A stretch of DNA of 16,680 nt, taken from the NCBI GenBank assembly GCA_017405115.1, contig JAFRBA010000232.1:1-16680 (forward strand), in the 5' to 3' direction. Both the position numbers and the translations under genes were made by a program. Of the stretch, positions 2,386 through 16,680 are shown piece after piece. This DNA is from Kiritimatiellia bacterium. GTDB taxonomy: Bacteria; Verrucomicrobiota; Kiritimatiellia; RFP12; UBA1067. Below the pieces are notes generated by a model. It saw only the letters and a list, made by a program, of their open reading frames with translations, did no database searches and was not told the DNA's origin. The first letter of the stretch is position 1; the number at the start of each line of letters is the position of its first letter.

Positions 2386-5180
2386 TGGCGCACGGAACGG
2401 CAATCTCCGCGCTCGCCGCCCTGTGCGCCTGCGCCGCGTCCGGATACGCCGCGTTGCCGCGCCCCGTGTGGCGGGATCCCGACCAGTCCGGGAAGCGAGC
2501 CTTCGTGACGCGGCTTGACGACGGCTCGCGGCTGCGCGTCGACGTGGTGGCGGCGGACGTCGTTCGCGTGCGGCGCACTGCGGGCGAGGTCTGGACCGAA
2601 AGCGGCATGAACCGCTACGGGATCGTGCGTCGGCTGGAATGGGACGGCGCGGGCCTCGAAATCGGCGACGGCAGGGCGTCCACTGAGGCGCTGGAGGTCT
2701 CGGCCGGGAAGGACGGCGAGGTGCGGGTGCGCTCGCGCGTCTCCGGGGCGGACCTTTCGGTGAAGACATCGCTCACGCCGGACGGTGGCGCGGTCAGGTT
2801 CCCGCTTGCGCCCGGCGAGCGAGTGTTCGGCCTTGGCGACGTCCACCGCGGCAACATCCAGCGCAGACCGGGAAGGTACGAGATATTCGTGAAGAACGTG
2901 AACAGCTACATCCCGGTGCCGATGGCCATGACGAGCGGCGGATGGGGCGTGTTCATGAACACGACGTGGAAGAACTGGTTCGACGTCGGCAAGGCGGATG
3001 CCGACGCCATGAATTGCGGGATCCCGGTTGGGGACCTCGACTTCTACGTGTTCGTCGGGAGCGGCTACCGCGAGCTCCTCGATGCGTACACGCGCCTCAC
3101 CGGCAGGCCGCAGCTGTTGCCGTCGTTCGCATTCGGCTTCGCGTACGTCTGCAACCAGTACGTGAACGAGTTCGAGCTCGTCAACGAGGCCACGTGGTTC
3201 GAGAAGCTCGGCCTTCCGATAGACATAATAGGCCTGGAGCCAGGATGGATGGAGACGTTCTACGACCATTCGACGAAGAAGCGCTGGGATCCGAAGAGGT
3301 TCGGCTCCTTCCCGTTCTGGTGCCCCGTCGGCAAGCACATCTTCCCGTCCGCGCTCGAGCGCATGGGTATCAACCTCTCCCTCTGGATGTGTTGCGACTA
3401 CGACCTATTTCGCTACGAGGAGCAGTGCGCGGCGGGCGAGGCGAAGCGCCGCGGCGAGTCGTTCGCCGTAAATCCCGAGACAGGCGACACGTGGGTAGAC
3501 CCGCGCATCGAAAAGGAGTCCGTGGCCGCAGGGGGGAAGGTCGCGCGGCCGACGAGTGTGTACGAGTGGGACAAGTACCTCGACATGAACGCAATCGACA
3601 AGAAGTACCTCGAGGAGGCGCGCTATCCGGAGGGCGCGCTGCCGTGGTTCCGCCATCTCGAGAAGTTCTGCGACCAGGGCGCACGCTGCTGGAAGCTAGA
3701 CGGCAACCTGCAGGTATGCCAGATAGACGAACATCCAGGGCGAGTCTATGTCAATGGAATGAGTGTCGAAGAGGCGCACAACCTGTATCCGGTCGTCTAC
3801 GACAAGCAGATGGCGCAGGGCTACGAGCAGTACACCGGCCGTCGCGCGATGGTGTATTCGGCCGGCGGATACGCGGGCGTGCAGGCGTACGTGGCGACGT
3901 GGGCGGGCGACACTGGCGGCGGGGAGAAGACGCTCGTCTCGACGCTGAACCTCGGCCTGACGGGGCACCCGAACCAGAGCTGCGACATGACCCTGGCGTC
4001 CAAGACGCGGATGCACTACGGGTTCCTCGCCCCGTGGAGCCAGGCGAACGACTGGGACAGCTTCCACCGCCCGTGGACCGAGGGCGAGGAGGCCGAGAGA
4101 TCCTTCCGCCACTACGCGGCGCTGCGCTACTCGCTCTTCCCGTACATCTACGCTGCCGCTGCCGAGGCCTCGCGCACCGGATGGCCGATAGCGCGCGCCC
4201 TCGCGTTGGAGTTCCCCGGCGAGACGCGCTACGACGACTGCTTCACGACCTATCTCCTCGGTCCGGACCTGCTCGTCTCGGCGTTCGGCGAGTTCACCGA
4301 CGTCCCGCCGGGCACATGGTACGACTGGCGCACGGGACGGCGTGTCGAGGGCCCGTGCCGCGAGAGGATCGACCTCTCCGGCGTGTGGGGCGGCGGGCTT
4401 CTCGCCAGGGAGGGCGCAATCGTCCCCAGACTCGAAGGCAGGCGCCATCTTCCGCGCGGCTGGTACGAAAGCGTGGTGTTCGACGTTTGGCCGAAGGCTT
4501 CAGGCGAGTCGTCCCGCGTCTGGTACGAGGACGACGGCGACTCCCTCGGCTACCGCGACGGGGAATTCTCCGAGACCCGCGTTTCGTGCTCGAGGGAGGG
4601 CGGCGAGATCGTGTTCAGGATCGCCCCTCGCCGCGGTTCGTTCAAGGGCATGCCCAGGAGCCATTACGTGAAGCTGCGCTTCCGGCTTGACGCGCGTCCG
4701 GACGTCGACTGCGGAGAGTACGACTGGTACGCGAAGATGTTCTCCGTGGACCTGGGCGACGTAGACGCGGATACCGGCGCGGAGTTCCGCCTGAAGGCGC
4801 CCAAGGCGGTGCCAGCCTTCGCCGACGGGAGGTTCAAGGGTGTGGACCTCGGCGACATCTTCCTCAAGGACTCTCCTGGGCCCGTGCGCGCATTCGATCG
4901 CGAAGGCCGCGAGATCCGCGTCGCGGCGACCGAGCCGAGCTACGCGAAGCTGATGGAGATGAAGGACGAGGCCGGGCGCAGGCGCGGGTCCTGCGCCATG
5001 CGCGTGACGCTGACGCCGCGCAGCGTGCGTCCGGAAATCGCGCCGCTGCTGAAGCTCGTCGATGCCGTCGTGTTCGATGGCGGCTCGGAGCCCGACGCCG
5101 CCAGGCGCGCCGCCGCGCTTGCGGAACTCAGGCGCCTTGCGCCGGACATTCCGGTGTATGTCGCCCAGGAGGGTTTATGA
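2385..5180 (+). CDS. Secreted GH31-family alpha-glycosidase
   Basis: A 931-residue exported glycoside hydrolase. The start at 2385 gives a signal peptide (residues 1-22, cleavage after SGYA) and follows a GGAGG site; the frame extends further upstream only as overlap. An N-terminal beta-sandwich (galactose-mutarotase-like, about 25-235) precedes the (beta/alpha)8 barrel. In the barrel WKLDGN places the predicted nucleophile at D439 and WAGDTGG the predicted acid/base at D509; their 70-residue spacing suits GH31. A DUF5110-type beta domain follows, with YEDDG at 714-718 and GEFSET. About 160 C-terminal residues (roughly 770-931) go beyond the usual architecture and are unassigned. GH31 members retain configuration and attack alpha-linked glucose, xylose, galactose, GalNAc or sulfoquinovose; the substrate here is not determined. 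It is translationally coupled on both sides (TGATG at each junction). Confidence 0.92.
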   Translation: MAHGTAISALAALCACAASGYAALPRPVWRDPDQSGKRAFVTRLDDGSRLRVDVVAADVVRVRRTAGEVWTESGMNRYGIVRRLEWDGAGLEIGDGRASTEALEVSAGKDGEVRVRSRVSGADLSVKTSLTPDGGAVRFPLAPGERVFGLGDVHRGNIQRRPGRYEIFVKNVNSYIPVPMAMTSGGWGVFMNTTWKNWFDVGKADADAMNCGIPVGDLDFYVFVGSGYRELLDAYTRLTGRPQLLPSFAFGFAYVCNQYVNEFELVNEATWFEKLGLPIDIIGLEPGWMETFYDHSTKKRWDPKRFGSFPFWCPVGKHIFPSALERMGINLSLWMCCDYDLFRYEEQCAAGEAKRRGESFAVNPETGDTWVDPRIEKESVAAGGKVARPTSVYEWDKYLDMNAIDKKYLEEARYPEGALPWFRHLEKFCDQGARCWKLDGNLQVCQIDEHPGRVYVNGMSVEEAHNLYPVVYDKQMAQGYEQYTGRRAMVYSAGGYAGVQAYVATWAGDTGGGEKTLVSTLNLGLTGHPNQSCDMTLASKTRMHYGFLAPWSQANDWDSFHRPWTEGEEAERSFRHYAALRYSLFPYIYAAAAEASRTGWPIARALALEFPGETRYDDCFTTYLLGPDLLVSAFGEFTDVPPGTWYDWRTGRRVEGPCRERIDLSGVWGGGLLAREGAIVPRLEGRRHLPRGWYESVVFDVWPKASGESSRVWYEDDGDSLGYRDGEFSETRVSCSREGGEIVFRIAPRRGSFKGMPRSHYVKLRFRLDARPDVDCGEYDWYAKMFSVDLGDVDADTGAEFRLKAPKAVPAFADGRFKGVDLGDIFLKDSPGPVRAFDREGREIRVAATEPSYAKLMEMKDEAGRRRGSCAMRVTLTPRSVRPEIAPLLKLVDAVVFDGGSEPDAARRAAALAELRRLAPDIPVYVAQEGL
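5167..5172 (+). promoter_or_regulatory. Strong Shine-Dalgarno site deciding the start of the next gene
   Basis: A perfect AGGAGG lies within the last codons of the GH31 gene. It is 4 bases from the ATG at 5177 and 7 bases from the ATG at 5180, which favours 5180. That choice also reproduces the TGATG overlap seen at 2383-2387. Confidence 0.75.
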
Positions 5181-6064
5181 TGGCGCTCCGCATGCTGTCC
5201 GCCGCCGTCGCCGCGTTGATCCTTCCGAGTGCGTACGGAGCCGGCGATTCGGTCGTGGTGCGATTTGACGCGAAGCCGAAGCCGGACGTCAAGACGCTCT
5301 TCGCCGCCTCCGCCGACATCTCCAATGCCGCCGGCAAGTGGCAGTTTGGCGTCAAGAACCTGCGCGCCCATGGAAACGCGCCGCGCAGATTCTCGTTCGC
5401 GACGGGAAACGGGCGGCAGAACGGCTTCAGCGGCCTCATATCGTCCGTCGCCCTCGAGGTGAACGGGATTCCGTGGGAGAAGCTCCTTGTGCACGAGCGC
5501 GGCGTCCGCCAGTGGAGTCCGCCCGGCGACAGGCGCGGCGTGGAGATGTTCTTCAACTTCGACGGCGTGCCGGTGCGCGTGAGGGCGTCCATGGCGCCGG
5601 GCTCGCCGACCCTCGACTTCGAGATCACCCCGTCGACGCGCGGGCAGATGGCTCCTACCAGCATGGTGGTGAGAGTTTCGTCGATCCCGTCGTTCCTCGA
5701 CTGCGGGAGCGGCAAGCCCACGCGGTTTTTCGGATACCGGCGGCAGGTGCGTACGGAGAAGCGCCTGATTGGACCGGTGAAGTCCGGAAAGTTCGCCCTC
5801 GACGCCGGCGAGCGCGTGTTCGTGATGGAGGATGCCGACTACGACGGCGCGTCCGAAGGCAGGGGGCAAGGCCCAAGCGCCGTGCTGCTTGCCGACGCCA
5901 CGCCTGGCTTCGCGCACGTGAACGACAGCTGGACGGTCGACATGCGCTTCACTCCCGACCCTTCGAAGACGTTCCGTTTCTCTCTGCTCGAATGGCCGGA
6001 GAAGCGCGTCTCCAACGCCGATTTCGAGCGCGAAGCCGCCGTGTTCGCGACCAGACTCCCGTAG
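5180..6064 (+). CDS. Secreted protein of unknown family
   Basis: A protein of 294 residues (295 if the adjacent ATG at 5177 is used). The N-terminus is a clear signal peptide: a short Arg-containing start, the hydrophobic run MLSAAVAALILPSAYG, then a small-residue cleavage region near AYGAG. I do not recognise the mature part. It is rich in alternating hydrophobic/polar strands and aromatic residues, with few predicted helices, so an all-beta sandwich is likely. Notable segments are FFNFDGVPVRVRASMAPGSP, FVMEDADYDGASEG and DSWTVDMRFTPDPSK. Two Gly/Pro-rich acidic loops could bind a ligand or metal, but this is a guess. Coupling to the GH31 gene through TGATG and a strong AGGAGG implies matched expression, so a carbohydrate-binding or accessory role beside the glycosidase is plausible but unproven. 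Confidence 0.85.
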   Translation: MALRMLSAAVAALILPSAYGAGDSVVVRFDAKPKPDVKTLFAASADISNAAGKWQFGVKNLRAHGNAPRRFSFATGNGRQNGFSGLISSVALEVNGIPWEKLLVHERGVRQWSPPGDRRGVEMFFNFDGVPVRVRASMAPGSPTLDFEITPSTRGQMAPTSMVVRVSSIPSFLDCGSGKPTRFFGYRRQVRTEKRLIGPVKSGKFALDAGERVFVMEDADYDGASEGRGQGPSAVLLADATPGFAHVNDSWTVDMRFTPDPSKTFRFSLLEWPEKRVSNADFEREAAVFATRLP

Positions 6065-6155
6065 CCATGCCGCACCAGCGCACCATGGGCGAATTGCGCA
6101 CTTGCACGATGTGACCTTTTGAGTTGCGACACGGTGGGCTTTGGCTGCGGATTTG

Positions 6156-6164
6156 TGGTATAAT
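6156..6164 (+). promoter_or_regulatory. Extended -10 promoter (TGG-TATAAT)
   Basis: A perfect TATAAT at 6159-6164 is preceded by the extended -10 dinucleotide TG one base upstream. No convincing -35 hexamer is seen at 16-18 bases, so the extended element probably compensates. Transcription would begin near 6171, leaving a leader of about 50 bases before the GTG at 6223. The rest of the gap (6065-6222) holds no gene or clear terminator. The same core, TGTGGTATRAT, recurs at 10212-10222. Confidence 0.75.
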
Positions 6165-6203
6165 ACGTGGCATAGAAGTAGAAGAGTGCCATCTGCATGT
6201 AGC

Positions 6204-6213
6204 TGGAGAAAGG
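6204..6213 (+). promoter_or_regulatory. Shine-Dalgarno region for the GTG start at 6223
   Basis: The purine tract GGAGAAAGG sits about 9 bases before the GTG at 6223. Together with the promoter at 6156-6164 this rules out the longer frame that begins with TTG at 6124. Confidence 0.6.
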
Positions 6214-6222
6214 ACTTACGTC

Positions 6223-7125
6223 GTGAACAAGAAGCTGCCAAGTTTATGCTGTGCCGTTGCATCGCTGGTCATTCCTCTCTTGACCTTTGGGGCGACGGAA
6301 GACTGTGAGCCCGGCGAGCCGAAGATATCGGTGTTCGCAAGCTTCATCCGCGCCATCGCCAGGCAGCGCGGCGTCTCGAAGGCGCAAGCCGCCGACCTGC
6401 TGTACGAAATGGGGGTGCGGGGATTCGACGCAGGGCCGTCGGAACCGGATCTGGACGAGCTTGCGGGGACTCGCCTGAAGCCGATCAACCTATATTACTT
6501 CCCGGATTGGTTCGGGCGCAAGAAAGGCGGGGGCGTGCTTTCTCCCGAAGCGTGCCTGTCTCGCGCCGCGAAGCTTGGCGTGCCGCGCATAATGGTGGTG
6601 CCTCCGGGCTTCACCGACGGGAAGGACAACCTCGGCGAGTTTGAGCGGATACTTGCGCACATGAGGGAGTTCGTCGCCATGGCGAAAAGCCGTTCCATCA
6701 TCGTAACGGTCGAGGATTTTGGCGGAACGGCGAACTGCTGCTCGTACGCAAAGTATCTGAAGCGCTTCCTGGACGAGATTCCCGACCTCCGCTTCGCGCT
6801 CGACTCCGGGAACCTCTACTATGCTGGGCGGGGCGAGGACATCCTCGAGATGATGGCGTTCGCGAAAGGGCGCATCGGGCACGTCCACCTGAAGGACCAG
6901 TCGAAGGATGACAACCGCGGATACGTGACGCTTGGAATGGGGGCTGTGCCGAACGAGCGGGTCGTCAAGGAGGTCGCGGCCTCTGGATACGACGGCTGGT
7001 ACACGCTCGAGAACCCGGTGGGCGACGTCCTGAACGACTCTGTGCGCCAGGTCGCCCTGCTCAAGTCATGGCTGGCGGCGGCGCGTCGTTCCGGGTGCGC
7101 GGGTTCCACGAGCGGAAACCGCTGA
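6223..7125 (+). CDS. Exported xylose-isomerase-like TIM-barrel protein
   Basis: A 300-residue member of the sugar phosphate isomerase/epimerase (AP endonuclease 2 / xylose-isomerase-like TIM barrel) superfamily. The GTG start is chosen because the promoter and ribosome site lie just upstream. It begins with a signal peptide (MNKKL, then a hydrophobic stretch ending LTFGA), which is unusual for a family that is mostly cytoplasmic. The metal site of the fold is visible: E164 in TVEDF, D194 in ALDSGN, H220 and H222 in HVHLKD with D225, and E263 in TLEN. Such enzymes isomerise or epimerise small sugars using a divalent metal; the substrate here is unknown. The gene leads a new transcription unit and stands 23 bases before a second member of the same superfamily that lacks a signal peptide. 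An exported lipoprotein form is less likely, since no clean lipobox is seen. Confidence 0.85.
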   Translation: MNKKLPSLCCAVASLVIPLLTFGATEDCEPGEPKISVFASFIRAIARQRGVSKAQAADLLYEMGVRGFDAGPSEPDLDELAGTRLKPINLYYFPDWFGRKKGGGVLSPEACLSRAAKLGVPRIMVVPPGFTDGKDNLGEFERILAHMREFVAMAKSRSIIVTVEDFGGTANCCSYAKYLKRFLDEIPDLRFALDSGNLYYAGRGEDILEMMAFAKGRIGHVHLKDQSKDDNRGYVTLGMGAVPNERVVKEVAASGYDGWYTLENPVGDVLNDSVRQVALLKSWLAAARRSGCAGSTSGNR

Positions 7126-7137
7126 ACGCTTTCGACT

Positions 7138-7142
7138 GGAGG
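7138..7142 (+). promoter_or_regulatory. Shine-Dalgarno site for the gene at 7149
   Basis: GGAGG lies 6 bases before the ATG at 7149. It fixes this start, rather than the in-frame ATG at 7068 inside the previous gene. Confidence 0.7.
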
Positions 7143-7148
7143 CCTGTC

Positions 7149-8063
7149 ATGCAAATAGCAGTCTGCAGCTGGAGCTACCGCCTGAGCGCGGAGCGTGTCG
7201 CCGAGGAGATGTCGAAGTGCGAGGTGAAGAATGTCCATCTCGCGCTAAATCCATTCGTCGATCCGCTGGCGGTTGTGCCGGGGACGGCGGGCGAAACCGA
7301 GAACGTCGCCGGGACGGGAGGCGTCGATTCGCTCGACAAGCAGCGCGCCGACATCGAGGAATACCTTGCCTCCGGCCGGTGGAAGATATCGTCAACGCTC
7401 CACAACTCGCGCTACGACGACTATTCGACGCTCGAGTCCATCCGCAGGACGGGCGGGCTCGTCCCCGACGAGCACTGGGAGGAGAACCGCAGGATCATCG
7501 CGGACGTGGCGAAGCTGACGGCGGAGTGGAAGTCGCCCTACATGATGCTCCACGCAGGCTACATAGACCCGTCCGACAGGGCCGGGCACGCGAAGCTCAC
7601 CGACCGCCTCAAATGCGTGCGCGACATCTGCGCCGACGTCGGCGTCGGCCTTACGCTCGAGACGGGGCAGGAAACGGCAGAAGACCTCGCCGAGACGCTG
7701 TCGAACCTGCCGGGCGTATACGTAAACTTCGACCCCGCGAACATGATACTCTACGGGAAGGGCGACCCCGTCAAGGCCGTGAAGACGCTTGCGCCCTGGA
7801 TCCGGCACATCCACATAAAGGACGCGAAAAACGCGAAGACGCCCGGCACTTGGGGCGAAGAGGTCGAGTGGACGAAGGGCGAGGTCAACGCGGACGCATT
7901 CATCGCGGCGCTCAGGGATGTCGGCTACGATGGATGCCTTGCCGTCGAGCGCGAGGCTGGCGACGACCGCAGTGGAGACATCGCCCGCGCGGTAATGGAC
8001 TTGCGCAGAAGGGGGCTCTCTGCCGTCGGCGCTCCACATGGAGAAGCAGAAGGACATGAATGA
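7149..8063 (+). CDS. Cytoplasmic sugar phosphate isomerase/epimerase-like TIM-barrel protein
   Basis: A 304-residue xylose-isomerase-like TIM-barrel protein starting MQIAVCSWSY, with the first barrel strand right at the N-terminus and no signal peptide, hence cytoplasmic. The expected divalent-metal ligands are visible: E171 in LTLETGQ, D195 in NFDPANM, H220 and H222 in HIHIKD with D225, and E267 in AVERE. The HIH/D motif falls at the same residue numbers as in the upstream paralogue, but the rest of the two proteins differs widely. A 25-residue Gly-rich loop after strand 2 (VVPGTAGETENVAGTGG) is a distinctive insertion. It probably isomerises or epimerises a sugar (or keto-sugar) released by the neighbouring hydrolases; hydroxypyruvate-isomerase-like or inositol-pathway roles remain possible. 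Its end overlaps the next gene by 8 bases, pointing to co-translation. Confidence 0.87.
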   Translation: MQIAVCSWSYRLSAERVAEEMSKCEVKNVHLALNPFVDPLAVVPGTAGETENVAGTGGVDSLDKQRADIEEYLASGRWKISSTLHNSRYDDYSTLESIRRTGGLVPDEHWEENRRIIADVAKLTAEWKSPYMMLHAGYIDPSDRAGHAKLTDRLKCVRDICADVGVGLTLETGQETAEDLAETLSNLPGVYVNFDPANMILYGKGDPVKAVKTLAPWIRHIHIKDAKNAKTPGTWGEEVEWTKGEVNADAFIAALRDVGYDGCLAVEREAGDDRSGDIARAVMDLRRRGLSAVGAPHGEAEGHE

Positions 8064-10170
8064 AGCGAACAAGTCTCGTGCGATGGCCGTGGCGACATTG
8101 TGTGTCGCCGCAACCGTCTGGGCCGCGCCGGTAGAACGTCCATATCAGTTTCATGCCGAACTTGAGACTGTCCATGAGGCGGGGATACGCGATCTCTCGC
8201 TGAAGCCGCAAGCCGACGAGTTCTCGCTTGTCGACGGCATGGCCATCTCGGTGCCGAAAGACGACGGCTTTCTCCGCAGGGTCGCGGAGGATTTCGCCGA
8301 TTACCTGGCCGTTTCCCATGGCATCAGCGTGCGTGTGGCGATGGACGAAGCCGGCGCAGCCGTCACGGCAAGGATCGATCCGTCGATGTCGCCGCGTGAA
8401 TACCGCTGCGCGGTGTCATGGCATGGCGTCAGGATATCCGCTGCCGACGGACGGGCCGTGGCACAGGCTTTCTACCACCTGGAAGACCTGATGAGCTTGC
8501 GCATGGCGCCGTTTCTCAAGTTCGGCTACAAGCGGCGCAGGACGGTGTTCGCGCCGCGTATGATCCACTCCGGCTGGGGCATTGATACCTTCCCGGAGCC
8601 ATATCTCGTCCGTGCGGCGCACCACGGCTTTGACGCCATTCTGGTCTTTGTCCCGGAGGTGGGCCGGACGCAGCGCGGATGGTGCGACATCAATGCAATC
8701 ATCCGTCGCGCTTCGAAGTGGGGGCTTGACACCTACCTCTACAGCTATGTGCATGCGCCGGTCCATCCGGACGATCCGCAGGCCGAACGCGTGTTCGACG
8801 AGACGTACGGGGCGATCGCCCGCGCCTATCCTTCCGCCCGCGGCTACATATTCGTGGGCGAAAGCTGCCAGTTCCCGTCGCGCGATCCGCGCACCAACGG
8901 CAAGATTCGTCCCACGCTGCCAGATCCTGGCGATGAGCGTCCGTATCCCTGCATGTATCCCTGCAGCGACTATCCGGACTGGTTGCGGGGCGTCAAGCGG
9001 GCGATTGACCGATACAGTCCTGGCGCGGAGATTGTATTCTGGACCTACAACTTCGGCTCCCAGCCGGTGGATGCGAGGCTGGAGCTCTTGCGGAAGATGC
9101 CGAGGGACGTCACATTGCTCGTGACCTTCGAGATGTTCAACGAAACGGTGAAGGCCAATGGCCTCAGGTCGCGCGTGCGCGACTATTCGCTGTCCGATCC
9201 CGGGCCGGGCGCCTATTATCTTTCGGAGGCCGAAGAATGCGGCAAGCTTGGCTTGAGGCTGTACACCCAGTCCAATACGGCGGGGCTCACGTGGGACCTC
9301 GGCACCGTGCCGTATCTGCCGTGTCCGCAACAGTGGAAAAAGAGGTGGGACGCGCTCAACGCCTCGCATGGCCGGCACCGTCTTTCCGGGCTGATGGAAG
9401 GGCACCACTACGGCTGGACGCCGTCGTTTGTCACCGAGCTGTCAAAGGAGGCGTTCACGGACGGGGGGATGCCGTTTGACGAGCATCTGCGCAAGATTGC
9501 GGCGCGGGACTTCGGAGAGGCAAACGCCGAGCGCGCAATCGCAGCCTGGCAGTGGCTCTCCGAGGCTGTCGCGGACAGTTTCCCATGTCCCCAGAACCTG
9601 GCTGGCCCGTATCGCATCGGGCCCGCGATGCCTTTCAACTTCACGACGAACAGGATTGAGTACTCCGACGTTCCGTTCCCGAAGGCGTCGCCATACGTGA
9701 AAAACTATTGCTGGACGTATTTCAACTATCTTGAGGATTTTGCAAAGCGGCGTTTCCCGCCGGTGACCAAGACGGACTGGCGGCCAGACCAGCTCAAGCT
9801 CGAGGCGGAGCTTCTTGAAGGCATGGTCGGGAAATGCGAAGCGGCGGCCGACGCGTTTGTCGCGATGGTGCCGACGGTAGACGCGCGGCGGGCTGGAAAG
9901 GCGAAAAGGATGTCTGACCTGGCGCGCTACATGGCCCGTTGCTGGACGACGACCCGAAATCTCAAGTTGGGCGTGTTGGCTCATCTCGCAAGAGATGCCG
10001 TCGCGATGAAGGCGGCTGCAAAGGCGGAGTACGCAAACAAGGCCGCCACGCTTGAGCTTGTCGACCGCAACTCCCGCCTTGGGTGGGAGCCGTCGATGGA
10101 CTACATGGGCGGCCGGGCCATGATCGAATGGTCCATGAAGCTGATGCGCGACGCATACGAACTTGAATAG
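8056..10170 (+). CDS. Large exported TIM-barrel glycoside hydrolase candidate (GH20/GH67-like)
   Basis: About 704 residues from ATG 8056 (710 from ATG 8038). I prefer 8056 because GGAG lies 12 bases upstream and the overlap with the previous gene is only 8 bases. A signal peptide ends near VWAAP. Residues about 40-150 resemble the small alpha/beta N-terminal domain of GH20 and GH67 enzymes (REYRCAVSWHGVRISA followed by AVAQAFYHLEDL). A barrel begins at MIHSGWGID (about 169). Candidate acidic active-site residues are E269 in IFVGES, E359/E363 in FEMFNE and E448 in EGHHYGW; which are catalytic is not established. The C-terminal 170 residues are mainly helical (FGEANAERAIAAW, then ELLEGMVGKCEAAADAF). 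It probably cleaves a beta- or alpha-linked hexosamine or uronic acid, but the family assignment is by pattern only. No terminator follows; the next promoter lies in the 117-base gap. Confidence 0.82.
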   Translation: MNEANKSRAMAVATLCVAATVWAAPVERPYQFHAELETVHEAGIRDLSLKPQADEFSLVDGMAISVPKDDGFLRRVAEDFADYLAVSHGISVRVAMDEAGAAVTARIDPSMSPREYRCAVSWHGVRISAADGRAVAQAFYHLEDLMSLRMAPFLKFGYKRRRTVFAPRMIHSGWGIDTFPEPYLVRAAHHGFDAILVFVPEVGRTQRGWCDINAIIRRASKWGLDTYLYSYVHAPVHPDDPQAERVFDETYGAIARAYPSARGYIFVGESCQFPSRDPRTNGKIRPTLPDPGDERPYPCMYPCSDYPDWLRGVKRAIDRYSPGAEIVFWTYNFGSQPVDARLELLRKMPRDVTLLVTFEMFNETVKANGLRSRVRDYSLSDPGPGAYYLSEAEECGKLGLRLYTQSNTAGLTWDLGTVPYLPCPQQWKKRWDALNASHGRHRLSGLMEGHHYGWTPSFVTELSKEAFTDGGMPFDEHLRKIAARDFGEANAERAIAAWQWLSEAVADSFPCPQNLAGPYRIGPAMPFNFTTNRIEYSDVPFPKASPYVKNYCWTYFNYLEDFAKRRFPPVTKTDWRPDQLKLEAELLEGMVGKCEAAADAFVAMVPTVDARRAGKAKRMSDLARYMARCWTTTRNLKLGVLAHLARDAVAMKAAAKAEYANKAATLELVDRNSRLGWEPSMDYMGGRAMIEWSMKLMRDAYELE

Positions 10171-10193
10171 CCCCTGCGCCGCCATTACCGCGC

Positions 10194-10222
10194 TTGAATT
10201 TGTCGTCCAAATGTGGTATGAT
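10194..10222 (+). promoter_or_regulatory. Sigma70-type promoter with -35 and extended -10
   Basis: TTGAAT at 10194-10199 and TATGAT at 10217-10222 are separated by exactly 17 bases, with TGG just before the -10 (extended element). Transcription should start near 10229, giving a leader of about 60 bases that contains AGGAGGGG at 10257-10264. The remainder of the 10171-10287 gap holds no other recognisable feature. Confidence 0.8.
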
Positions 10223-10287
10223 GCGCGTGTTTTATTGGAAAATAGGCAAGAAAAGCAGGAGGGGCGATCAACTTTCGCACAGAGTCG

Positions 10288-12288
10288 ATGAGGGAGGTCA
10301 CGAAGAATGGCTTCATGGGCGGGATTGCCGCCGTCGCTTTGGCGGCGTTTTCGCCCTGCACGCTCATTGCGGACGCGAACTCGTTCGCTTCGGCGAAGTT
10401 ACACGTCCAGGTTGACGTTGAGAACATCGACGCCAAGAGCATGCCGCTCTATCTTGCCGACGCACGGGCGGCCGGGGCGGATGCCGTGCAGATTGCGGTA
10501 TGCGACTTCTTCTGTCGAGGAGAGGCGCGTCGGCACAGGCTAGAAACGGTGAAATACGCCCTTGCCGAAGCGGAGAAGGCAGGGTTCGCGACGGCGGTGT
10601 GGACTTCGTCCATTGGCTACGGGTCGAAGGCGGCGCCGGAAACAATGGAGCGCTTTGCTGGATCGACGCGCCTGACCGCCCTTGACGGCAAGGCGCACCG
10701 CTCCGCCGCAATATGCCCGCTCGACCCGACGCTGCGCGAGGCCCTCTGCGAAAACGTGCGCGACTACATCCGCGCTGGCGCGAAGTTCATATTGTGGGAC
10801 GACGACTTCATCCAGAGTGCACGCTGGTTCGTCTGCTGCACGTGTCCGCGCCACCTCGCGCTCGTGCGCGAGAAACTGGGCCGTGACGTAACTGCGTCTG
10901 AGATCCGCGATTCGTTCTGTGGCGGGCCGAACGCCGTGCGCACCGCGTTTCTCGACGCCGACCGCGACGCCGCCAAGGGGCTGGCGCGGCTTCTGCGCGA
11001 GACGGCGGACGCGACCGCGCCAAACATAGGGATGGGGCTTTGCGCGACATATACCCTCTACGACATTGAAGGCACGGACGTCCGGGACATCGTCGCCGCG
11101 TTTGCAGGGAATGGGCCGAAGGTCTTCCGTCTTAGTGGCGCCACCTACTGGCCGCTCGCAGGCAGCGAGCGCTACCCTGGCCAGGGGCTTGACGGCGTCT
11201 TCGAATACATGCGGCTGCAGAGGACGCTTCTCGCCGGGAGCGGAATCACGCTGCTCGACGAGAACGACCCCCATCCGCGCCGCACGTCAGTCGTGCCTGC
11301 ATGGGCCACGGAGCTCTTCGACAAGGTGGTCATCGCCGCTGGCGGCATCGTCCGCAACAAGTACATCCTGCGCTATCCCGCCGACCGCTCGGAGCAGGGG
11401 TATCTCTTCGCGCATTTGGAAAACAAGCGCGACGACGCGAAGCTTTCCGCGATGTTCGCCGGAACGGAGGACTGCGGGTGGCGCGTCGTATTCCCCGAAC
11501 ATCTCGCCCGCGAGGCCGAGCTGCCGGGGAAGTACGTCGGTGACCGCGAGCTGATGAACGTCTTTTCGTTTCCATTGGCGTCGCACTTCCTCGCCCTTAA
11601 CGGACATCCCTCCAAGTTCTCGGGGAAAGGTCCGTCGATAGCATTCGGGCCGGCCGCCGTGATGCTGGACGACGCGGCGATGCGGCGCGGCGTTCTGCTC
11701 GACCGTTATGCCGCGGGCATCCTGGAGAAGCGTGGCATCCGCACCGGGCCTTCCGGCATCCCCGGAAATTCCGGATTCGCCACACACGCCGATGCGCAGG
11801 GGAGAAAGTTCGCCGTCTTCGGGTTTGACGCGATGTCGCTAGATTTCGCCGGCTATGCCGCAGGCTCGCATCGCACCGCTCTCGCGGAGGCCATGGGGTT
11901 CTTTGGCGCAGAGGTGCCGTGCCGCGTGGAAAGCGATTCGCACGTCTACCAGATGGTGAGGCGCGATCCACGCACAGGCGAGATGTCCGTGCTGGTGGAG
12001 AATCTTACCGACGCGCCTGCGGACGTGAAGGTCCTCGTCGGCGGCAAGGCGACCGTGGTGTCCGCGCTGCGCGGCGAGTTTCGCGCCGTTCCAGGCGGGT
12101 TCGCGCTCGAGAGACTTGCGCCGCACGAGTTCGCGGCGGTGCGCATTCGACTTCAACCAAAAGAGGCAATTGCAAAGCCCCTTCGCGATGCGTCGTTTGG
12201 TAGGGCGGTTTCGACGAAACCGCCGCAAACGGCGGCATCATCGATGCCGCCCTACCAGGTTTTGCAATTACCTCATAAGACAAACTAA
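10288..12288 (+). CDS. Exported GH42-like (clan-A-like) TIM-barrel protein with a repeat-derived C-terminus
   Basis: A 666-residue protein. ATG 10288 gives a good signal peptide (MREVTKNG, hydrophobic core, cleavage near IADA), although no ribosome site is well spaced to it; an in-frame TAG at 10243 limits longer starts. Residues about 35-340 look like a beta-galactosidase-type (GH42) barrel: repeated alpha/beta units, FILWDDDF (D171-D173), a Cys cluster C183/C184/C186, and LLDEND with E325 as a possible nucleophile. Residues about 380-550 resemble the glutamine-amidotransferase-like trimerisation domain, and 555-624 a small beta domain ending VRIRLQ. In GH42 the acid/base sits in an Asn-Glu pair after strand 4; here that place appears to hold Asp residues, so activity may differ. 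From residue 626 on, the sequence is encoded by the palindromic element at 12163-12274 and is probably not native. It opens a transcription unit that likely includes the beta-helix gene 11 bases downstream. Confidence 0.83.
   Translation: MREVTKNGFMGGIAAVALAAFSPCTLIADANSFASAKLHVQVDVENIDAKSMPLYLADARAAGADAVQIAVCDFFCRGEARRHRLETVKYALAEAEKAGFATAVWTSSIGYGSKAAPETMERFAGSTRLTALDGKAHRSAAICPLDPTLREALCENVRDYIRAGAKFILWDDDFIQSARWFVCCTCPRHLALVREKLGRDVTASEIRDSFCGGPNAVRTAFLDADRDAAKGLARLLRETADATAPNIGMGLCATYTLYDIEGTDVRDIVAAFAGNGPKVFRLSGATYWPLAGSERYPGQGLDGVFEYMRLQRTLLAGSGITLLDENDPHPRRTSVVPAWATELFDKVVIAAGGIVRNKYILRYPADRSEQGYLFAHLENKRDDAKLSAMFAGTEDCGWRVVFPEHLAREAELPGKYVGDRELMNVFSFPLASHFLALNGHPSKFSGKGPSIAFGPAAVMLDDAAMRRGVLLDRYAAGILEKRGIRTGPSGIPGNSGFATHADAQGRKFAVFGFDAMSLDFAGYAAGSHRTALAEAMGFFGAEVPCRVESDSHVYQMVRRDPRTGEMSVLVENLTDAPADVKVLVGGKATVVSALRGEFRAVPGGFALERLAPHEFAAVRIRLQPKEAIAKPLRDASFGRAVSTKPPQTAASSMPPYQVLQLPHKTN
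12163..12274 (+). repeat. Nested-palindrome REP/MITE-like element inside the 3' end of a gene
   Basis: A 112-base structured element. Its ends are 17-base inverted repeats: GAGGCAATTGCAAAGCC at 12163-12179 and GGTTTTGCAATTACCTC at 12258-12274 (15 of 17 positions pair). Inside, TGGTAG (12198-12203) pairs with CTACCA (12252-12257). That stem encloses two perfect hairpins: a 10-bp stem with a one-base loop at 12204-12224, and a 9-bp stem with a three-base loop at 12231-12251, both starting GGCGG. The whole could fold as a cruciform or three-way structure in DNA or RNA. It carries no gene. It is read in frame as the last residues of the upstream protein. No other copy is in the window. Confidence 0.85.
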
Positions 12289-12292
12289 GGAG
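12287..12292 (+). promoter_or_regulatory. Shine-Dalgarno site for the beta-helix gene
   Basis: AAGGAG overlaps the TAA stop of the upstream gene and stands 7 bases before the ATG at 12300. It lies just outside the right end of the palindromic element. Confidence 0.75.
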
Positions 12293-12299
12293 TAAAAAG

Positions 12300-15200
12300 A
12301 TGAAAACCATAAGGCACTTGTTGGCGGTGATCGCGTTCGCATGTTCGCTCTGCGGCTACGCAACGGACTACTACGTCGACGCCGTGAACGGCAACGACGC
12401 AAACAGCGGTCTCGCCGCCGGCGAAGGGAACGCGATGGAGTCTTTCGCCGCGCTGTTCGCCAAGTACACGATCACCTCCGGCAGCGTCGTCCACGCCGCG
12501 CCGGGCGTCTACACGAACGGCGTGATGACAGGTTATCGCGTGATAGTGCCAGCGGGAGTCACGATCGTTGCGGACGAAGGCCCGGAGAATACGATCATCA
12601 AGGGCGCTTCGGCGGAAGGCGTAGCCTTGGACGTGTCGCCGTTCGGCTGCGGCACAGGCGCCATTCGCTGCGTGTATCTTGGCGAAGGCGCAATAGTCAA
12701 GGATTTCACGCTGACGGACGGCCACTCTCCCGCATACGACGGCAATACGTATATAGGTGCGGTCAACGGGTCGAGTACGACGACATATGTCATTGGATGC
12801 GTTGTTACGAACAATGTCGCCGGTCGTGCGGCGGGCGTGTACCGGTCAGCCGCCATCCGTTGTTTCTTCGACAACAACCGCGCCTATACGACAGGGTGCG
12901 ACGTTATGCAGGGCAGCGCGTTCAACTGCCTTTTCGGCAATCTGCCGAACACGGGAAACTACAACCTCTATCAGGGCGGGCCATACGTGAACAACACGTT
13001 CTACGGATCCGGCTCGTGCGCCCATGCGGCAAATTCGGGAACGATAATGCTGTACAACTCCCTCATTCTGAAGGGGCCTGCAAGCAATGTGTATTGTACA
13101 AACAGCGTCCTTACGAGTGCCAGCATCGGGCGCTACGAATCGACGAAGATTGCAAACGCGGCGGCAGCGAGACTCGATGCCGACTATCGTCCGCTTCGCG
13201 ATTCGCCGTGCATTGATGTCGCATCTTGGGAATTCTATACGAACAGGTTCCCGTCCGCAGTCATCGATGAAGCGACGAAGGACTTCCTCGGCAATCCGCG
13301 TATCGTGGGAGCGGCCTTGGACGCCGGCGCGTGCGAGTCGCAGTTTGCCACCGGCGTTCCGTTCGACTGGCACGTGGACGCGGTTAACGGCAGCGATGCG
13401 AACGACGGCACTTCGGCGGAGAAGGCGTTTCAGAATCTATCGATGGCGCTTACCAACTCGTATCTACGTTCCGGCGACACCGTCCATGCAGCACCAGGAC
13501 TTTACACGAACGGCGTGATCACGTCGAATTGGCGGTTCCGTGCCGTCGTCCCGGCGGGCGTTGCGCTTGTCGGCGATGCGGGAGCGGAGCGGACCTTCAT
13601 CGTGGGAGAGCCTGATCCGGCAGTTGAATTGAACGCCTCGCCGTGGGGATGCGGCAGCGGGGCTACGCTGTGCGTCCGTCTGTGGGAAGGCTCGTCCGTT
13701 CGCGGATTCACGCTGACCGGAGGCCGTGCGGCAGGATACAGCGGGAATAACTTCGGCGCGGCGGTCTACTGCGGCGACGACAGGGTCAACAACAAGACGT
13801 ACGGCTATGTCGTCGACTGCATCATAACAAACAACTGCGCCGCACGCGGCGCGGGCACGTTCGGCGCGGTATCCGTCCGATGCAAGTTTGCAGACAACCG
13901 CGCGTCGCAGGAATCCAGCGACATTCGCGCCGGTTGTGCGTTCAACTGCCTGTTCGGCGACGTGCTCAACACGTCCACGGACAACTTTTTCGGGAGCAGC
14001 GACTTGTTTTATTGTGCTAACTGCACCTTCTACGGATCAGGTGCGGCGGGCAGGATGAACGCGAAAAACGCCGGACTTCGCAATTGCGTGATACTGAAGA
14101 ACGTCGGGCAGTACATGATATTGTCGAATTGCGTCTATACGGGCAGCCTCGGGAGCAACGCCTCTGCCGGCAATTCTAAGAAGGTCGATTCCGTGGAGGC
14201 CGTCCATCTGGACGCGTCGTACCGCCCGCTCCGCAATTCGCCCGCGCTCGACAAGGGCGACGCGACGCACTACACGCTACCGGCTGCGTTGGCGGACGAG
14301 TCCGGATACGACATCCTCAAGGCCGCGCGCGTGCAGGGGCTTGGAATCGACATCGGCGCGTTCGAGTCGTCGGAGTCGTTGGCCTCGACGAACTGGTACG
14401 TGAACGTTGAGACTGGAAGCGACGCAAATGATGGTGCAACGGAGGCAACTCCGTTCAAAACGCTTGCCGCAGCCATGACGAACGGTCGGCTCGCCGAAAA
14501 CGACATTGTGAACGTGGCGGAGGGAACGTATTCTGACGGCGAGATGACCACCGCGTCCTCCCGCAAGTACCGCGTGGTCGTGCCGGCGGGCGTCACGCTC
14601 CTCGGCGCTGGCGCTGACAAGACGATCATCGAAGGCGCCGAAGACCGCGAGAACGGCACGGAGGCCGGCCATTGGTGCGGGCCGAACGCCCTCGCGTGCG
14701 TAAAGCTCTACGCAGGTTCGATCGTTCGCGGCGTGACTCTCACCAAGGGCCATACGCCCGCGTGGGAGGCAAGCAGTACGGAGAACTGGGGCGGCGCGGT
14801 GCAGGCTTCAGGAGTGGCCGCATACGTCGTGGACTGTGTGATCTCCAACAACTTCGCCGGACGCGGCGCGGGATTCTATGGCGGTACTGCGGTTCGCTGC
14901 CGCTTCAACGGCAACGGCGTTGCTTCGACAGGAACCGACATCATGCAGGGCAGCGCCTACAACTGCATCTTCGGCGACATCGTCAACGTCGGCCAGGACA
15001 GCGTATACCAGGGCCACCAGTACGTCAACTGCGTGTTCTACGGCGCGGGGAACGTCTCGCACGACAACAGCGGTACCGTCACCAACATCTGGAACAGCAT
15101 AGTGCTGCGGCAGTGGCCGGGGACGGGCGTCAGGCTCATAAACTGCGCCACGACCGCGTCCTCTACGTATTCCTACGGGGGGACTTCCATCACGCTCACC

Positions 15201-15743
15201 CAGGCCGAGATGATGCTCGACGAGAACTATGCACCGCGCAAGGGTTCGCCGCTAATCGACAGGGGCCGCAACGACCTGTACGCCAAGTTCCCCGTGGCAG
15301 TCGCCGAAGCCCTTGCGAAGACCGATCTCGCGGGAAGCCAGCGCGTGTACAACGGAACGATCGACATTGGCGCGTACGAGTACGACTGGCGCGGAGACTT
15401 CGCGAAGAGGCTGAAGCGTTCGCAGGTAGAGGTTGTGTCTGCAAGCGCAGATGTCGTCACTAACGTAGTGAGGGCGCTGACCGTGCCGTCCGATGCGTCC
15501 ATCGAGATCGACTGGCGCGTGAAGGCTGACGGACGGCACACGTTCTATGCGGTTGCGGAGGGCGAGGGCTCCGTGTTCGTGACATGCGACGGCGTGGAGC
15601 TTTCGCCGACCGCCGACGGGCTGTATACGTTCATCGGGACAACGGGCGAGACGCGGCGAATCGTCGTATCTTGCTCCGATGGCGCGAGTGCCGTTCTCCG
15701 CGACTTCCGCGATTCCAGCGGCCTAACGATCTCGTTCAGGTGA
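12300..15743 (+). CDS. Exported triple-module right-handed beta-helix protein
   Basis: A 1147-residue protein with a signal peptide (MKTIRHLLAVIAF, cleavage near GYA-T22). The mature part is three homologous modules, residues 23-347, 356-690 and 698-1027. Each begins with a WYVDAVNGSDANDG-like segment, continues as a right-handed parallel beta-helix (G-x-T-L-x-G, xVVDCxIxNNxAxRGAG, FNCLFG turns), and ends with (I/L)D-(I/A)-GA-(Y/F/C)-E, the pattern typical of choice-of-anchor Q (DUF1565-like) proteins. Residues about 1028-1147 form a separate beta domain (ALTVPSDASIEIDWRV) of unknown type. Similar folds occur in polysaccharide lyases and surface adhesins; no lyase active site is evident, so glycan binding or surface attachment is as likely as catalysis. 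A strong AAGGAG drives translation. It follows the GH42-like gene by 11 bases. Confidence 0.88.
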   Translation: MKTIRHLLAVIAFACSLCGYATDYYVDAVNGNDANSGLAAGEGNAMESFAALFAKYTITSGSVVHAAPGVYTNGVMTGYRVIVPAGVTIVADEGPENTIIKGASAEGVALDVSPFGCGTGAIRCVYLGEGAIVKDFTLTDGHSPAYDGNTYIGAVNGSSTTTYVIGCVVTNNVAGRAAGVYRSAAIRCFFDNNRAYTTGCDVMQGSAFNCLFGNLPNTGNYNLYQGGPYVNNTFYGSGSCAHAANSGTIMLYNSLILKGPASNVYCTNSVLTSASIGRYESTKIANAAAARLDADYRPLRDSPCIDVASWEFYTNRFPSAVIDEATKDFLGNPRIVGAALDAGACESQFATGVPFDWHVDAVNGSDANDGTSAEKAFQNLSMALTNSYLRSGDTVHAAPGLYTNGVITSNWRFRAVVPAGVALVGDAGAERTFIVGEPDPAVELNASPWGCGSGATLCVRLWEGSSVRGFTLTGGRAAGYSGNNFGAAVYCGDDRVNNKTYGYVVDCIITNNCAARGAGTFGAVSVRCKFADNRASQESSDIRAGCAFNCLFGDVLNTSTDNFFGSSDLFYCANCTFYGSGAAGRMNAKNAGLRNCVILKNVGQYMILSNCVYTGSLGSNASAGNSKKVDSVEAVHLDASYRPLRNSPALDKGDATHYTLPAALADESGYDILKAARVQGLGIDIGAFESSESLASTNWYVNVETGSDANDGATEATPFKTLAAAMTNGRLAENDIVNVAEGTYSDGEMTTASSRKYRVVVPAGVTLLGAGADKTIIEGAEDRENGTEAGHWCGPNALACVKLYAGSIVRGVTLTKGHTPAWEASSTENWGGAVQASGVAAYVVDCVISNNFAGRGAGFYGGTAVRCRFNGNGVASTGTDIMQGSAYNCIFGDIVNVGQDSVYQGHQYVNCVFYGAGNVSHDNSGTVTNIWNSIVLRQWPGTGVRLINCATTASSTYSYGGTSITLTQAEMMLDENYAPRKGSPLIDRGRNDLYAKFPVAVAEALAKTDLAGSQRVYNGTIDIGAYEYDWRGDFAKRLKRSQVEVVSASADVVTNVVRALTVPSDASIEIDWRVKADGRHTFYAVAEGEGSVFVTCDGVELSPTADGLYTFIGTTGETRRIVVSCSDGASAVLRDFRDSSGLTISFR
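12366..13340 (+). repeat. Internal module 1 of the beta-helix protein
   Basis: First of three in-frame homologous segments (residues 23-347). It shares with module 3 the strings MQGSA and YQG, which module 2 lacks. Its terminal motif is degenerate (LDAGACES rather than IDIGAxE). Confidence 0.8.
13365..14369 (+). repeat. Internal module 2 of the beta-helix protein
   Basis: Second homologous segment (residues 356-690), starting HVDAVNGSDANDG and ending IDIGAFES. It differs most from the others in the turn after CAFNCLFGD. Confidence 0.8.
14391..15380 (+). repeat. Internal module 3 of the beta-helix protein
   Basis: Third homologous segment (residues 698-1027), starting WYVNVETGSDANDG and ending IDIGAYE. 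The start-to-start distances of the modules are 333 and 342 residues. Confidence 0.8.
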
Positions 15744-15748
15744 GGGGA

Positions 15749-15784
15749 AAGGGACATAAGGGACGAAAAGGACGCAAGGGACAG
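15749..15784 (+). repeat. Four-unit 9-bp purine-rich tandem array
   Basis: Four consecutive 9-base units: AAGGGACAT, AAGGGACGA, AAAGGACGC and AAGGGACAG, consensus AARGGACNN. They fill most of the 44-base gap between the beta-helix gene and the next DUF4838 gene. The last unit puts AAGGG 7 bases before the ATG at 15788, so it also serves as the apparent ribosome-binding site. Confidence 0.8.
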
Positions 15785-15787
15785 ACG

Positions 15788-16680
15788 ATGAAAAAGCTAA
15801 TCTTACTGGCGGCAGCAGCTGCATCGCTTTTGGCGCACGCCGGCGACGAAATCGTCCTGCCCCCCGACGCGAATGCCGTGGAGCGGACTGCGGCGCAGGA
15901 ACTCGCAGAGCATTGGAAGAAGGCGACAGGCTCGGAACCCGCTGTCTTGACAAACGCTACGGGAAAGGCAAGGTGGACGTTCCGCCTCGGGTGCGCGGCG
16001 CGGCAGATTGACCTCACTGGACTGGACAAGAACGACGCGACAATAAGGGTCGGCGACGGCACCGTCGACATCGCGGGCGTGGACGGCGCGGGGCGGGCCA
16101 TGAAGGCCAGCACGCCGTCGGGCACGCTCTTCGGCGTATACTCGTTCCTCGAGCGCAAGCTTGGCGTGCGCTGGCTGTGGCCGGGCGAACTCGGCACCGT
16201 CTGCCCGAAGTTCTCCGGCGCATCCATGGCGCAGGAGACTTGGACTGTGCGCCACATGGCGTTCTCTCAGTGGCGCGCAAGCGCAAACCTTGCGTCGCCT
16301 GGCTGGCCGGACCGCTCGGCCGCGCAGAGGTTCTACAGGAACCAGTCCCTTTGGCTGCGCCGTCACCGATTCGCCGCCTGCGACTCTCTCGCGAAGGGGC
16401 ATGCGTTCACGAAGTGGTACGCGCAATACGGCAAGACGCACCCCGAATGGTTCAACGAGATGCCGGACGGAACGCGGCGCGGCGACCCGTTCTACTTCGG
16501 AGGGCGGGCGGACATCATCTCGCTGTGCGCCTCCAACAGGGAACTTGTGCGCGAGATCGTGAGGCGTTGGGCGGAAAAGGATCCGACTGACATCATCAAC
16601 GGCAACGAAAACGACACGGCGGGCAAGTGCTGCTGCGCCAACTGCCTGGCGGCCGACGCGACGGGCGACGACGCCGGGCG
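15788..16680 (+). CDS. Exported DUF4838 / GH67-N-like protein (3' truncated by the window)
   Basis: At least 297 residues, running off the right edge. The ATG at 15788 gives a classic signal peptide (MKKLILLAAAAASLLAHA, cleavage before GDE). Residues about 20-145 match the alpha-glucuronidase-type N-terminal domain: IVLPPDANAVERTAAQELAE, then GTLFGVYSFLERKLGVRW and LWPGELG at 112-136. The start of the DUF4838 barrel follows, with FNEMPDG and RADIISLCASN, and then NEND (N275, D276) followed by C281, C282, C283 and C286. This Asn-Asp plus Cys cluster is common in DUF4838 proteins and absent from the DUF4838 gene at the left edge, so the two are distinct subtypes, not a recent duplication. Probable role: exported glycan-active protein; no biochemical function is established for most of the family. 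Confidence 0.85.
   Translation, partial: MKKLILLAAAAASLLAHAGDEIVLPPDANAVERTAAQELAEHWKKATGSEPAVLTNATGKARWTFRLGCAARQIDLTGLDKNDATIRVGDGTVDIAGVDGAGRAMKASTPSGTLFGVYSFLERKLGVRWLWPGELGTVCPKFSGASMAQETWTVRHMAFSQWRASANLASPGWPDRSAAQRFYRNQSLWLRRHRFAACDSLAKGHAFTKWYAQYGKTHPEWFNEMPDGTRRGDPFYFGGRADIISLCASNRELVREIVRRWAEKDPTDIINGNENDTAGKCCCANCLAADATGDDAG

What the first reader, a model, noticed from the sequence alone, without database searches (positions are those of the whole stretch)
12163..12274. Cloverleaf-like palindromic element captured as a protein C-terminus
The element has 17-base terminal inverted repeats, an inner TGGTAG/CTACCA stem and two perfect GGCGG-headed hairpins in tandem. This organisation resembles REP/BIME or MITE elements mobilised by a transposase in trans. 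It begins exactly at codon 626 of the GH42-like gene and supplies the last 37 or so residues before a stop just beyond the element. The recognisable protein domain ends at about VRIRLQ, just before it. An insertion that extends a secreted enzyme, and that places a structured RNA immediately before the next gene's ribosome site, could affect both mRNA stability and expression of the beta-helix gene.
Basis: partly seen in the sequence, partly recalled or inferred. Interest (0 to 1): 0.75.

Follow-up and report, generated by a model that had tools for sequence, protein, structure and literature searches.

The report
Jumping DNA hairpin became enzyme's tail
A 112-base non-autonomous transposon that carries a pair of repeated hairpins has landed at the very end of a secreted sugar-cutting enzyme gene in a Kiritimatiellae bacterium and now encodes most of the enzyme's last 41 residues.

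Summary
Core: a head-to-head pair of GTAG-tagged REP hairpins (REPIN/BIME type); the core, or one of its REPs, matches in 39 of 114 related genomes. Shell: 17-nt inverted ends of an IS5/IS1182-like insertion sequence (DDE transposase, 4-bp target duplications). Shell plus hairpin pair is a MITE family: a scan for paired ends 86-116 bp apart found 13 elements in 10 of 114 genomes, 11 exactly 101 bp; 12 carry hairpin pairs of two tagged types, 6 have exact 4-bp duplications. The window copy (112 bp, duplication 3 of 4) sits where the GH42-like fold ends: of nine other homologues aligned, eight lack it and one (91% identical) shares it; the model is ordered to residue 622 and unstructured from 626. 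The same REP pair is read in frame in a ferredoxin-like protein, intact in at least two genomes. GTAG-REP dimers inside genes and inside palindromes are in print (PMC3733652). No RAYT beside this REP type was found. New variant of a known kind; effects on expression untested.

The parts
12163..12274 (.). Non-autonomous MITE, 112 bp, carrying a GTAG-tagged REP pair
   Evidence: Paired ends and REP core; same order of parts as the 101-bp elements of relatives
12163..12179 (+). Left terminal inverted repeat GAGGCAATTGCAAAGCC
   Evidence: 15 of 17 bases as the IS end GAGGTAATTGCAAAACC; 1 mismatch to the degenerate form GAGGYARTTGCAAAACC
12258..12274 (-). Right terminal inverted repeat GGTTTTGCAATTACCTC
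   Evidence: 17 of 17 bases as the IS end; flanks of other copies diverge right after CCTC
12180..12198 (+). Left arm between terminus and REP pair (19 nt, longer than in the 101-bp elements)
12199..12224 (+). REP 1: GGTAG head plus 21-nt hairpin GGCGGTTTCGACGAAACCGCC
   Evidence: Same type multicopy in G056 and others
12225..12230 (.). 6-nt spacer between the two REPs
12231..12256 (-). REP 2, inverted: GGTAG head plus 21-nt hairpin GGCGGCATCGATGATGCCGCC
12159..12162 (.). Left flank AAAA, candidate half of a 4-bp target duplication
   Evidence: 3 of 4 bases match ATAA at 12275-12278
12275..12278 (.). Right flank ATAA, candidate half of a 4-bp target duplication
   Evidence: removing element plus 4 nt gives VRIRLQPKDKLRSKK, like homologue ends VRIRLQLEDKNKQRRKR, VRIRLQTEDKNK and VRIQLQLNDKKE
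10288..12288 (+). GH42-like secreted enzyme (666 aa); residues 626-666 are the tail that the element brought
   Evidence: fold matches GH42 / GH164 structures
12286..12288 (+). Stop codon, beginning 12 bases beyond the element
12289..12292 (+). GGAG, likely ribosome site of the next gene
   Evidence: sequence; inference
12300..15743 (+). Next gene, DUF1565 match, beta-helix-like

Best explanation
The stretch is a MITE whose ends belong to an IS5/IS1182-like insertion sequence and whose core is a head-to-head pair of GTAG-tagged REP hairpins (a REPIN). A DDE transposase encoded elsewhere bound the 17-nt ends and inserted the element, with a 4-bp target duplication, about four to nine codons before the point where the nearest homologues end. 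The frame entering the element happens to be open (GRAVSTKPPQTAASSMPPYQ), so the element replaced the native short tail and stop, and translation now stops 12 bases beyond it. Shown by calls: the anatomy; matching IS ends and transposase in relatives; 4-bp duplications of some IS and MITE copies; the repeated REP pair; homologues without the insert and one with it; an unstructured prediction for the tail. Inferred: that this kind of transposase moved the window's copy, that the tail is made as protein, and that it is tolerated rather than useful. REP pairs may also move or be exchanged by a separate route, since the same pair occurs outside this chassis.
For: Ends: TTTTGCAATTACCTC in 7 of 24 genomes, reversed control 0 in all; IS in G002 with both ends and a DDE_Tnp_1 + DUF772 transposase. 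IS duplications: left and right flanks agree at length 4 in 3 of 24 combinations against 0.12 expected, 0 of 24 at lengths 3, 5 and 6; TCTT/TCTT and TCTC/TCTC in 2 of 6 copies with both flanks. Chassis: 13 elements in 10 of 114 genomes, 11 of 13 exactly 101 bp, reversed control 0; exact 4-bp duplications 6 of 13 against 1 of 156 cross-element pairs. Junction CCCTACCN{0,2}GGTTTTGCAA: 24 places in 12 of 114, control 0. IS match in 6 of 10 chassis genomes against 7 of 104 others, Fisher 1e-4. REP core: 39 of 114 genomes, many by one REP only; at least 12 genomes have a match over 50 or more of the 60 bases in the capped listing; 23 copies read with flanks. GGTAG precedes a hairpin in 31 of 454 occurrences, 6.5-fold over average, in 399 kb of G056. 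Homologues: of ten proteins aligned (of 25 found), P0003-P0008, P0010 and P0011 lack the insert, P0002 carries KEAIAKPFRDVLFGRAVSTKPPRTPSS. Model: last strand 615-622, blocks from 631 on at pLDDT 34-40.
Against: The window copy's duplication is imperfect (AAAA / ATAA) and it is 112 bp, not 101. Its own genome is not held. The IS transposase is below the NCBIfam cut-offs for IS1182 (96 of 270 bits) and IS5_4 (75 of 140), so its family is approximate. 4 of the 6 IS copies with both flanks readable have no exact 4-bp duplication, and the copy in G002:C51, the only one there with both ends on one contig, has GCTG against A at the contig end. 7 of 13 chassis elements have no exact duplication. 4 of 10 chassis genomes show no IS match, in fragmented assemblies. 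The Fisher test ignores shared descent. Low confidence of the modelled tail is partly expected: 2 of 10 aligned sequences cover it.
Confidence: 0.87

Rival explanations
1. A REPIN moved by a RAYT (HUH tyrosine transposase) inserted here; the outer arms are an older MITE into which it jumped. Partly compatible with the best explanation.
For: The core occurs at unrelated sites and, read by eye, inside a second MITE type with other ends (near AGGTGTTGTCCAAAA) in G056. PF01797 (RAYT-like) matches in 19 of 24 and 10 of 10 genomes searched. GTAG hairpins of other types lie within about 250 bp of the PF01797 match in L158 (an inverted pair), L159 and L089; further ones in L086, L092 and L100 may lie inside the ORFs.
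Against: No GGTAGGG-type REP was seen directly beside a PF01797 match in the loci scanned; the three on the same loci (L084, L087, L097) are over 1 kb from the match, though nearer to the ORF end. GTAG hairpins near RAYTs are not above control heads, 7 against 1-22. Flanks were short and not every RAYT was scanned. The right arm matches the IS end at 17 of 17 bases, and paired ends recur at a fixed 101 bp without selection for the REP.
Confidence: 0.25
2. Ordinary coding sequence: the tail is a native, functional C-terminus and the palindrome a by-product of codon use.
For: In frame, and shared with one 91%-identical homologue.
Against: Eight of nine other aligned homologues lack it; the same DNA occurs at unrelated sites in other genomes; in the tail about 5-6 of 27 residues differ between P0001 and P0002, more than in the body; no predicted structure.
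Confidence: 0.02
3. A transcription terminator or RNA-processing hairpin kept for control of the next gene (as a secondary role this is compatible with the best explanation).
For: Very stable hairpin ending 25 nt before the next ATG; REPs in print are thought to act partly as RNA elements (PMC3733652, abstract and section 15).
Against: No T run follows and the scan lists no terminator there; the hairpin lies inside the reading frame, so ribosomes pass through it; elsewhere it behaves as a repeat.
Confidence: 0.15

Closest known systems
GTAG-tagged REP dimers (Di Nocera et al. 2013, PMC3733652; abstract and sections 4 part 1, 7, 15, 16 read, plus passages)
   Same: GTAG head, mostly 6-9 bp stems with covarying types, head-to-head dimers, presence in PVC bacteria (O. 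[quoted passage not shown] Anabaena variabilis GTAG-15 dimers lie within long palindromes; a GTGG tag is noted for O. terrae GTAG-20.
   Different: Here the enclosing ends are traced to a DDE-transposase IS with 4-bp duplications and a nearly fixed 101-bp spacing; no RAYT with this REP type was found.
REPINs (Bertels and Rainey 2011, PMC3116915; abstract and passages seen)
   Same: Two inverted REPs with spacer as the recurring unit.
   Different: RAYT link not found here; the pair rides inside an IS-derived MITE.
MITEs that extend proteins, e.g. QMITE2 in Coxiella enhC (PMC5896051; passages seen)
   Same: In-frame insertion at a gene's 3' end supplying the last residues, stop just beyond.
   Different: Other ends and core; no REP pair in the passages seen.
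Rickettsia palindromic elements (seen through passages of PMC10969869 and PMC3733652)
   Same: Palindromic repeats translated in frame inside unrelated proteins.
   Different: Those related to REPs are of the CGTC type; here GTAG type with an IS-type shell.
IS5 / IS1182 insertion sequences
   Same: DDE_Tnp_1 and DUF772 domains; best NCBIfam matches IS1182 and IS5.
   Different: Scores below the curated cut-offs.

Membership tests
MITE | Short, no transposase gene, paired terminal inverted repeats | tested here: met
   112 bp, 17-nt ends, 15 of 17 complementary
MITE | Ends shared with an autonomous IS | tested here: met
   7 of 11 IS loci examined show both ends of this kind; full IS in G002. 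Not testable in the window's own genome
MITE | Target-site duplication | tested here: inconclusive
   Window 3 of 4 bases; family 6 of 13 exact
MITE | Multiple copies | tested here: met
   13 chassis elements in 10 of 114 related genomes
GTAG REP / REPIN | GTAG tetranucleotide directly before a GC-rich hairpin | tested here: met
   Both REPs; GGTAG enriched before hairpins in G056
GTAG REP / REPIN | Two inverted units that can form a hairpin, multicopy | tested here: met
GTAG REP / REPIN | Cognate RAYT gene flanked by the same REP | tested here: not met
   None seen in the loci scanned; not every RAYT of every genome was scanned, so an unseen one is possible
IS5 / IS1182 (partner IS) | Transposase above the curated family score | tested here: not met
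   IS1182 96 of 270 bits, IS5_4 75 of 140
GH42 (host protein) | Fold and sequence of GH42 | tested here: inconclusive
   Best fold matches are GH42, GH164 and other glycoside enzymes, E 6.5e-13, TM about 0.5; no Pfam match and no PDB sequence match

The most novel reading that the evidence does not exclude
In this Kiritimatiellae family a DDE-transposase MITE of nearly fixed 101-bp length has become the vehicle of GTAG/GTGG-tagged REP pairs: hairpin stems are exchanged or converted between copies while length, junction and ends stay constant, so REPs spread without a RAYT; and the copies repeatedly become translated linkers or tails, among others in carbohydrate-active enzymes, as a source of new protein segments.
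Probability: 0.35. Interest if true: 0.72.

Novelty: new variant of a known kind. Interest (0 to 1): 0.55.

Why it matters
How REP repeats spread is still unsettled; the usual suspect is the RAYT transposase. A MITE with known ends, a known type of transposase and a nearly constant length that carries interchangeable REP pairs offers a second route that can be tested. It also gives clean cases in which the age and frame of a translated insertion can be followed across related enzymes.

Tried and rejected
Rejected: native tail, and terminator as the main role (see rivals). Window scan for further copies: none exact. Rfam: no match at gathering scores. RAYT adjacency: 7 GTAG hairpins in 106 kb, not above nine control heads (1-22 each); 9 GTAG[GA] hairpins in 183 kb. 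Closer homologue of the enzyme in 114 family genomes: 15 of 114 match, none above 49% identity, so the DNA of an empty site in a close relative could not be read and that comparison rests on proteins. One search used a pattern with one N too many and found 0 of 24; it says nothing and was not repeated in that form. Papers: none holds both Kiritimatiellae and repetitive extragenic palindromic, nor Kiritimatiellota and transposable element. Listings showed, by title and start of abstract, no paper on REP pairs inside DDE-type MITEs; I saw listings only and the library lacks most subscription journals, so this is weak evidence of absence.

Full report
WHAT IS THERE. The window comes from a Kiritimatiellae metagenome genome: the protein database names the window's GH42-like protein so (P0001). 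Between codon 626 and the stop of this gene lies a 112-bp element, 12163-12274. Its outer 17 nt are inverted repeats (15 of 17), its core is two perfect hairpins of 9-10 bp facing each other, each with GGTAG as outer head. It folds at -68 kcal/mol, z = -9.45.

THE CORE IS A REPEATED REP PAIR. With the 60-nt core as query, 39 of 114 genomes of one family of relatives match at E 0.001. At most 8 candidates were scored per genome and the list was cut, so copy numbers are lower bounds; many matches cover one REP only, and at least 12 genomes have a listed match over 50 or more of the 60 bases. G056 has eight near-full copies at 95-98% identity. I read 23 copies with flanks from 22 loci: in most the unit runs from GGTAG to CTACC at unrelated sites (L027 and L174 deviate; L026, L177 and L182 are one orthologous site). 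In 399 kb of G056, chosen partly because they held REP or RAYT hits, I counted every 5-mer lying 0-3 nt before a hairpin: apart from masked N, TAGGG (26 of 176, 14-fold), GGTAG (31 of 454, 6.5-fold) and their overlaps lead. Of those 31 I dropped 6 whose hairpin is of another kind; the other 25 and the window's 2 form alignment A2 (8 distinct): all share GGTAGGG, 6 of 9 stem pairs change on both sides, 98.6% of cells pair, covariation 0.69 against 0.17 in shuffles, 0 of 500. They were picked as hairpins, so pairing itself was selected for; the spread of types is the informative part.

THE SHELL IS AN IS-DERIVED MITE. The right terminus is exactly the end of an IS in G002, and the left one matches at 15 of 17. 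The IS has both ends at C51:23514-25119 and a 377-aa transposase with DDE_Tnp_1 and DUF772. NCBIfam places it nearest IS1182 and IS5, below the cut-offs. Flanks of copies diverge right after CCTC. Six left and four right flanks in G002 agree at length 4 in 3 of 24 combinations against 0.12 expected, and in 0 of 24 at 3, 5 or 6 (one right flank of a single base was left out, and two further copies with other inner sequence). That single base, in the copy on C51 itself, does not agree with its left flank. Of 11 IS loci examined, 7 show both ends; among the 6 of these with both flanks readable, 2 have an exact 4-bp duplication (G046 TCTT, G054 TCTC) and 4 do not. The transposase is found in 13 of 114 genomes, some in pieces.

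A FAMILY OF 101-BP ELEMENTS. The junction search (REP end, 0-2 nt, terminus) found 24 places in 12 of 114 genomes, reversed control 0. Nine of the 24 have no left terminus within 250 bp: three are one conserved coding site (L257, L258, L268), some are cut by contig ends or masked bases; seven are 101-bp elements, and 5 of the 24 have an exact 4-bp duplication. The second search asked only for two termini 86-116 bp apart: 13 elements in 10 of 114 genomes, control 0; 11 are 101 bp, one 102, one 107. Four hold GGTAGGG REP pairs, eight hold hairpin pairs tagged GTGG or GTAG before CAAGG at one end at least, one holds another repeat; exact 4-bp duplications in 6 of 13 against 1 of 156 swapped pairs, 1 of 13 at length 5. 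So a chassis of nearly constant length carries different hairpin pairs. An IS match is found in 6 of the 10 chassis genomes and 7 of the 104 others (kinship not corrected for). The window's element has the same order of parts with a longer arm and spacer, and a duplication matching at 3 of 4 bases, as an older copy might.

EFFECT ON THE PROTEIN. Of 25 homologues found I aligned ten, P0001 being the window's own; the others were shorter or more distant. P0003-P0008, P0010 and P0011 end within about 15 residues of position 622-625 with unrelated short tails; P0002, 91% identical, has KEAIAKPFRDVLFGRAVSTKPPRTPSS there, so the insertion predates that split. Taking out the element and 4 nt gives VRIRLQPKDKLRSKK, close to VRIRLQLEDKNKQRRKR (P0004), VRIRLQTEDKNK (P0009, a 368-aa piece) and VRIQLQLNDKKE (P0003); of nine offsets tried (0-8 nt) only this one puts DK right after LQxx without a stop between. 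It then reads on into the next gene, so the old stop must have changed since. The predicted structure ends with strand 615-622 at pLDDT about 89; 626-666 is unstructured, 34-40 from residue 631. The best fold matches are GH42, GH164 and other glycoside enzymes, so the GH42-like label is fair.

THE SAME REP PAIR IN OTHER PROTEINS. In a 4Fe-4S ferredoxin-like protein (matches in 36 of 114 genomes) a REP pair fills a variable linker in the same reading frame as in the window (GRAV...PPYQ). Of 32 loci examined, 19 gave a readable linker in one frame; 6 rows, 5 distinct places in G006, G050, G055, G059 and G071, carry it, 13 do not, and 13 further loci could not be read. G050, G059 and G071 show one stop codon within the wider match, G006 and G055 none. 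At this site the REP types differ between species. A scan listed 61 long frames with a REP inside, in 141 distinct REP contexts, many surely spurious; of ten that I picked for Pfam, three have domains on both sides of the REP: a GH2 beta-galactosidase, a GH106 rhamnosidase and an LRR / Flg_new protein. The GH106 case uses another frame. Two of three forward frames and one of three reverse frames of the window's core are open, so a shared frame is weak evidence of preference.

WHAT DOES NOT FIT. PF01797 (RAYT-like) matches are common (19 of 24; 10 of 10), but in the loci scanned none has a GGTAGGG REP right beside it; three on the same loci are over 1 kb from the match. GTAG hairpins of other types lie near a few RAYT matches, most clearly an inverted pair in L158. 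So whether RAYTs move these REPs is open. The same REP pair also sits, read by eye, in a second MITE in G056 with other ends, so core and shell are not inseparable.

COMPARISON. Di Nocera et al. 2013 (PMC3733652; [quoted passage not shown] variabilis. Work on TnpA-REP (PMC8266576, passages) shows the role of GTAG in binding and cleavage. Coxiella QMITE2 is said to supply the last 33 residues of EnhC in one strain (PMC5896051, passages). The MITE review (PMC10969869, passages) and the REPIN paper (PMC3116915, passages) give the other parallels. Each part thus has precedent; the combination with an identified DDE-type IS, 4-bp duplications and a nearly constant 101-bp size with varying REP pairs I did not see in the listings and texts named.

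VERDICT. Real, well explained, a new variant of a known kind; interest moderate, higher if the cargo-exchange reading holds.

Noticed in passing
L164, L166-L168, L170 (G056): A second MITE-like family with ends near AGGTGTTGTCCAAAA, read by eye, carries the same REP pair.
   Followed up: partly
L206:14949-15166 (G056:C1): Tandem array of REPs with a 48-base (16-codon) period near the start of a long open frame with ThiI and NFACT-R matches.
   Followed up: no
L158:1797-1891 (G054:C19): RAYT-like match followed at once by an inverted pair of GTAG hairpins of another type (TGTAGACGCGACGG): a likely REPtron.
   Followed up: no
L137:500-3028 (G108) and L257:3-2042 (G055): REPs in open frame between domains of a GH2 beta-galactosidase and of a GH106 protein.
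   Followed up: partly
L201, L278, L280, L282, L283, L286, L287, L289: 101- or 102-bp MITEs with GTGGCAAGG-tagged hairpin pairs, a second REP-like type in the same chassis.
   Followed up: partly
window 34-16680: Most of the window is a run of genes for carbohydrate breakdown in one direction (DUF4838, GH31, xylose-isomerase-like, GH20-like domain, GH42-like, DUF1565).
   Followed up: no
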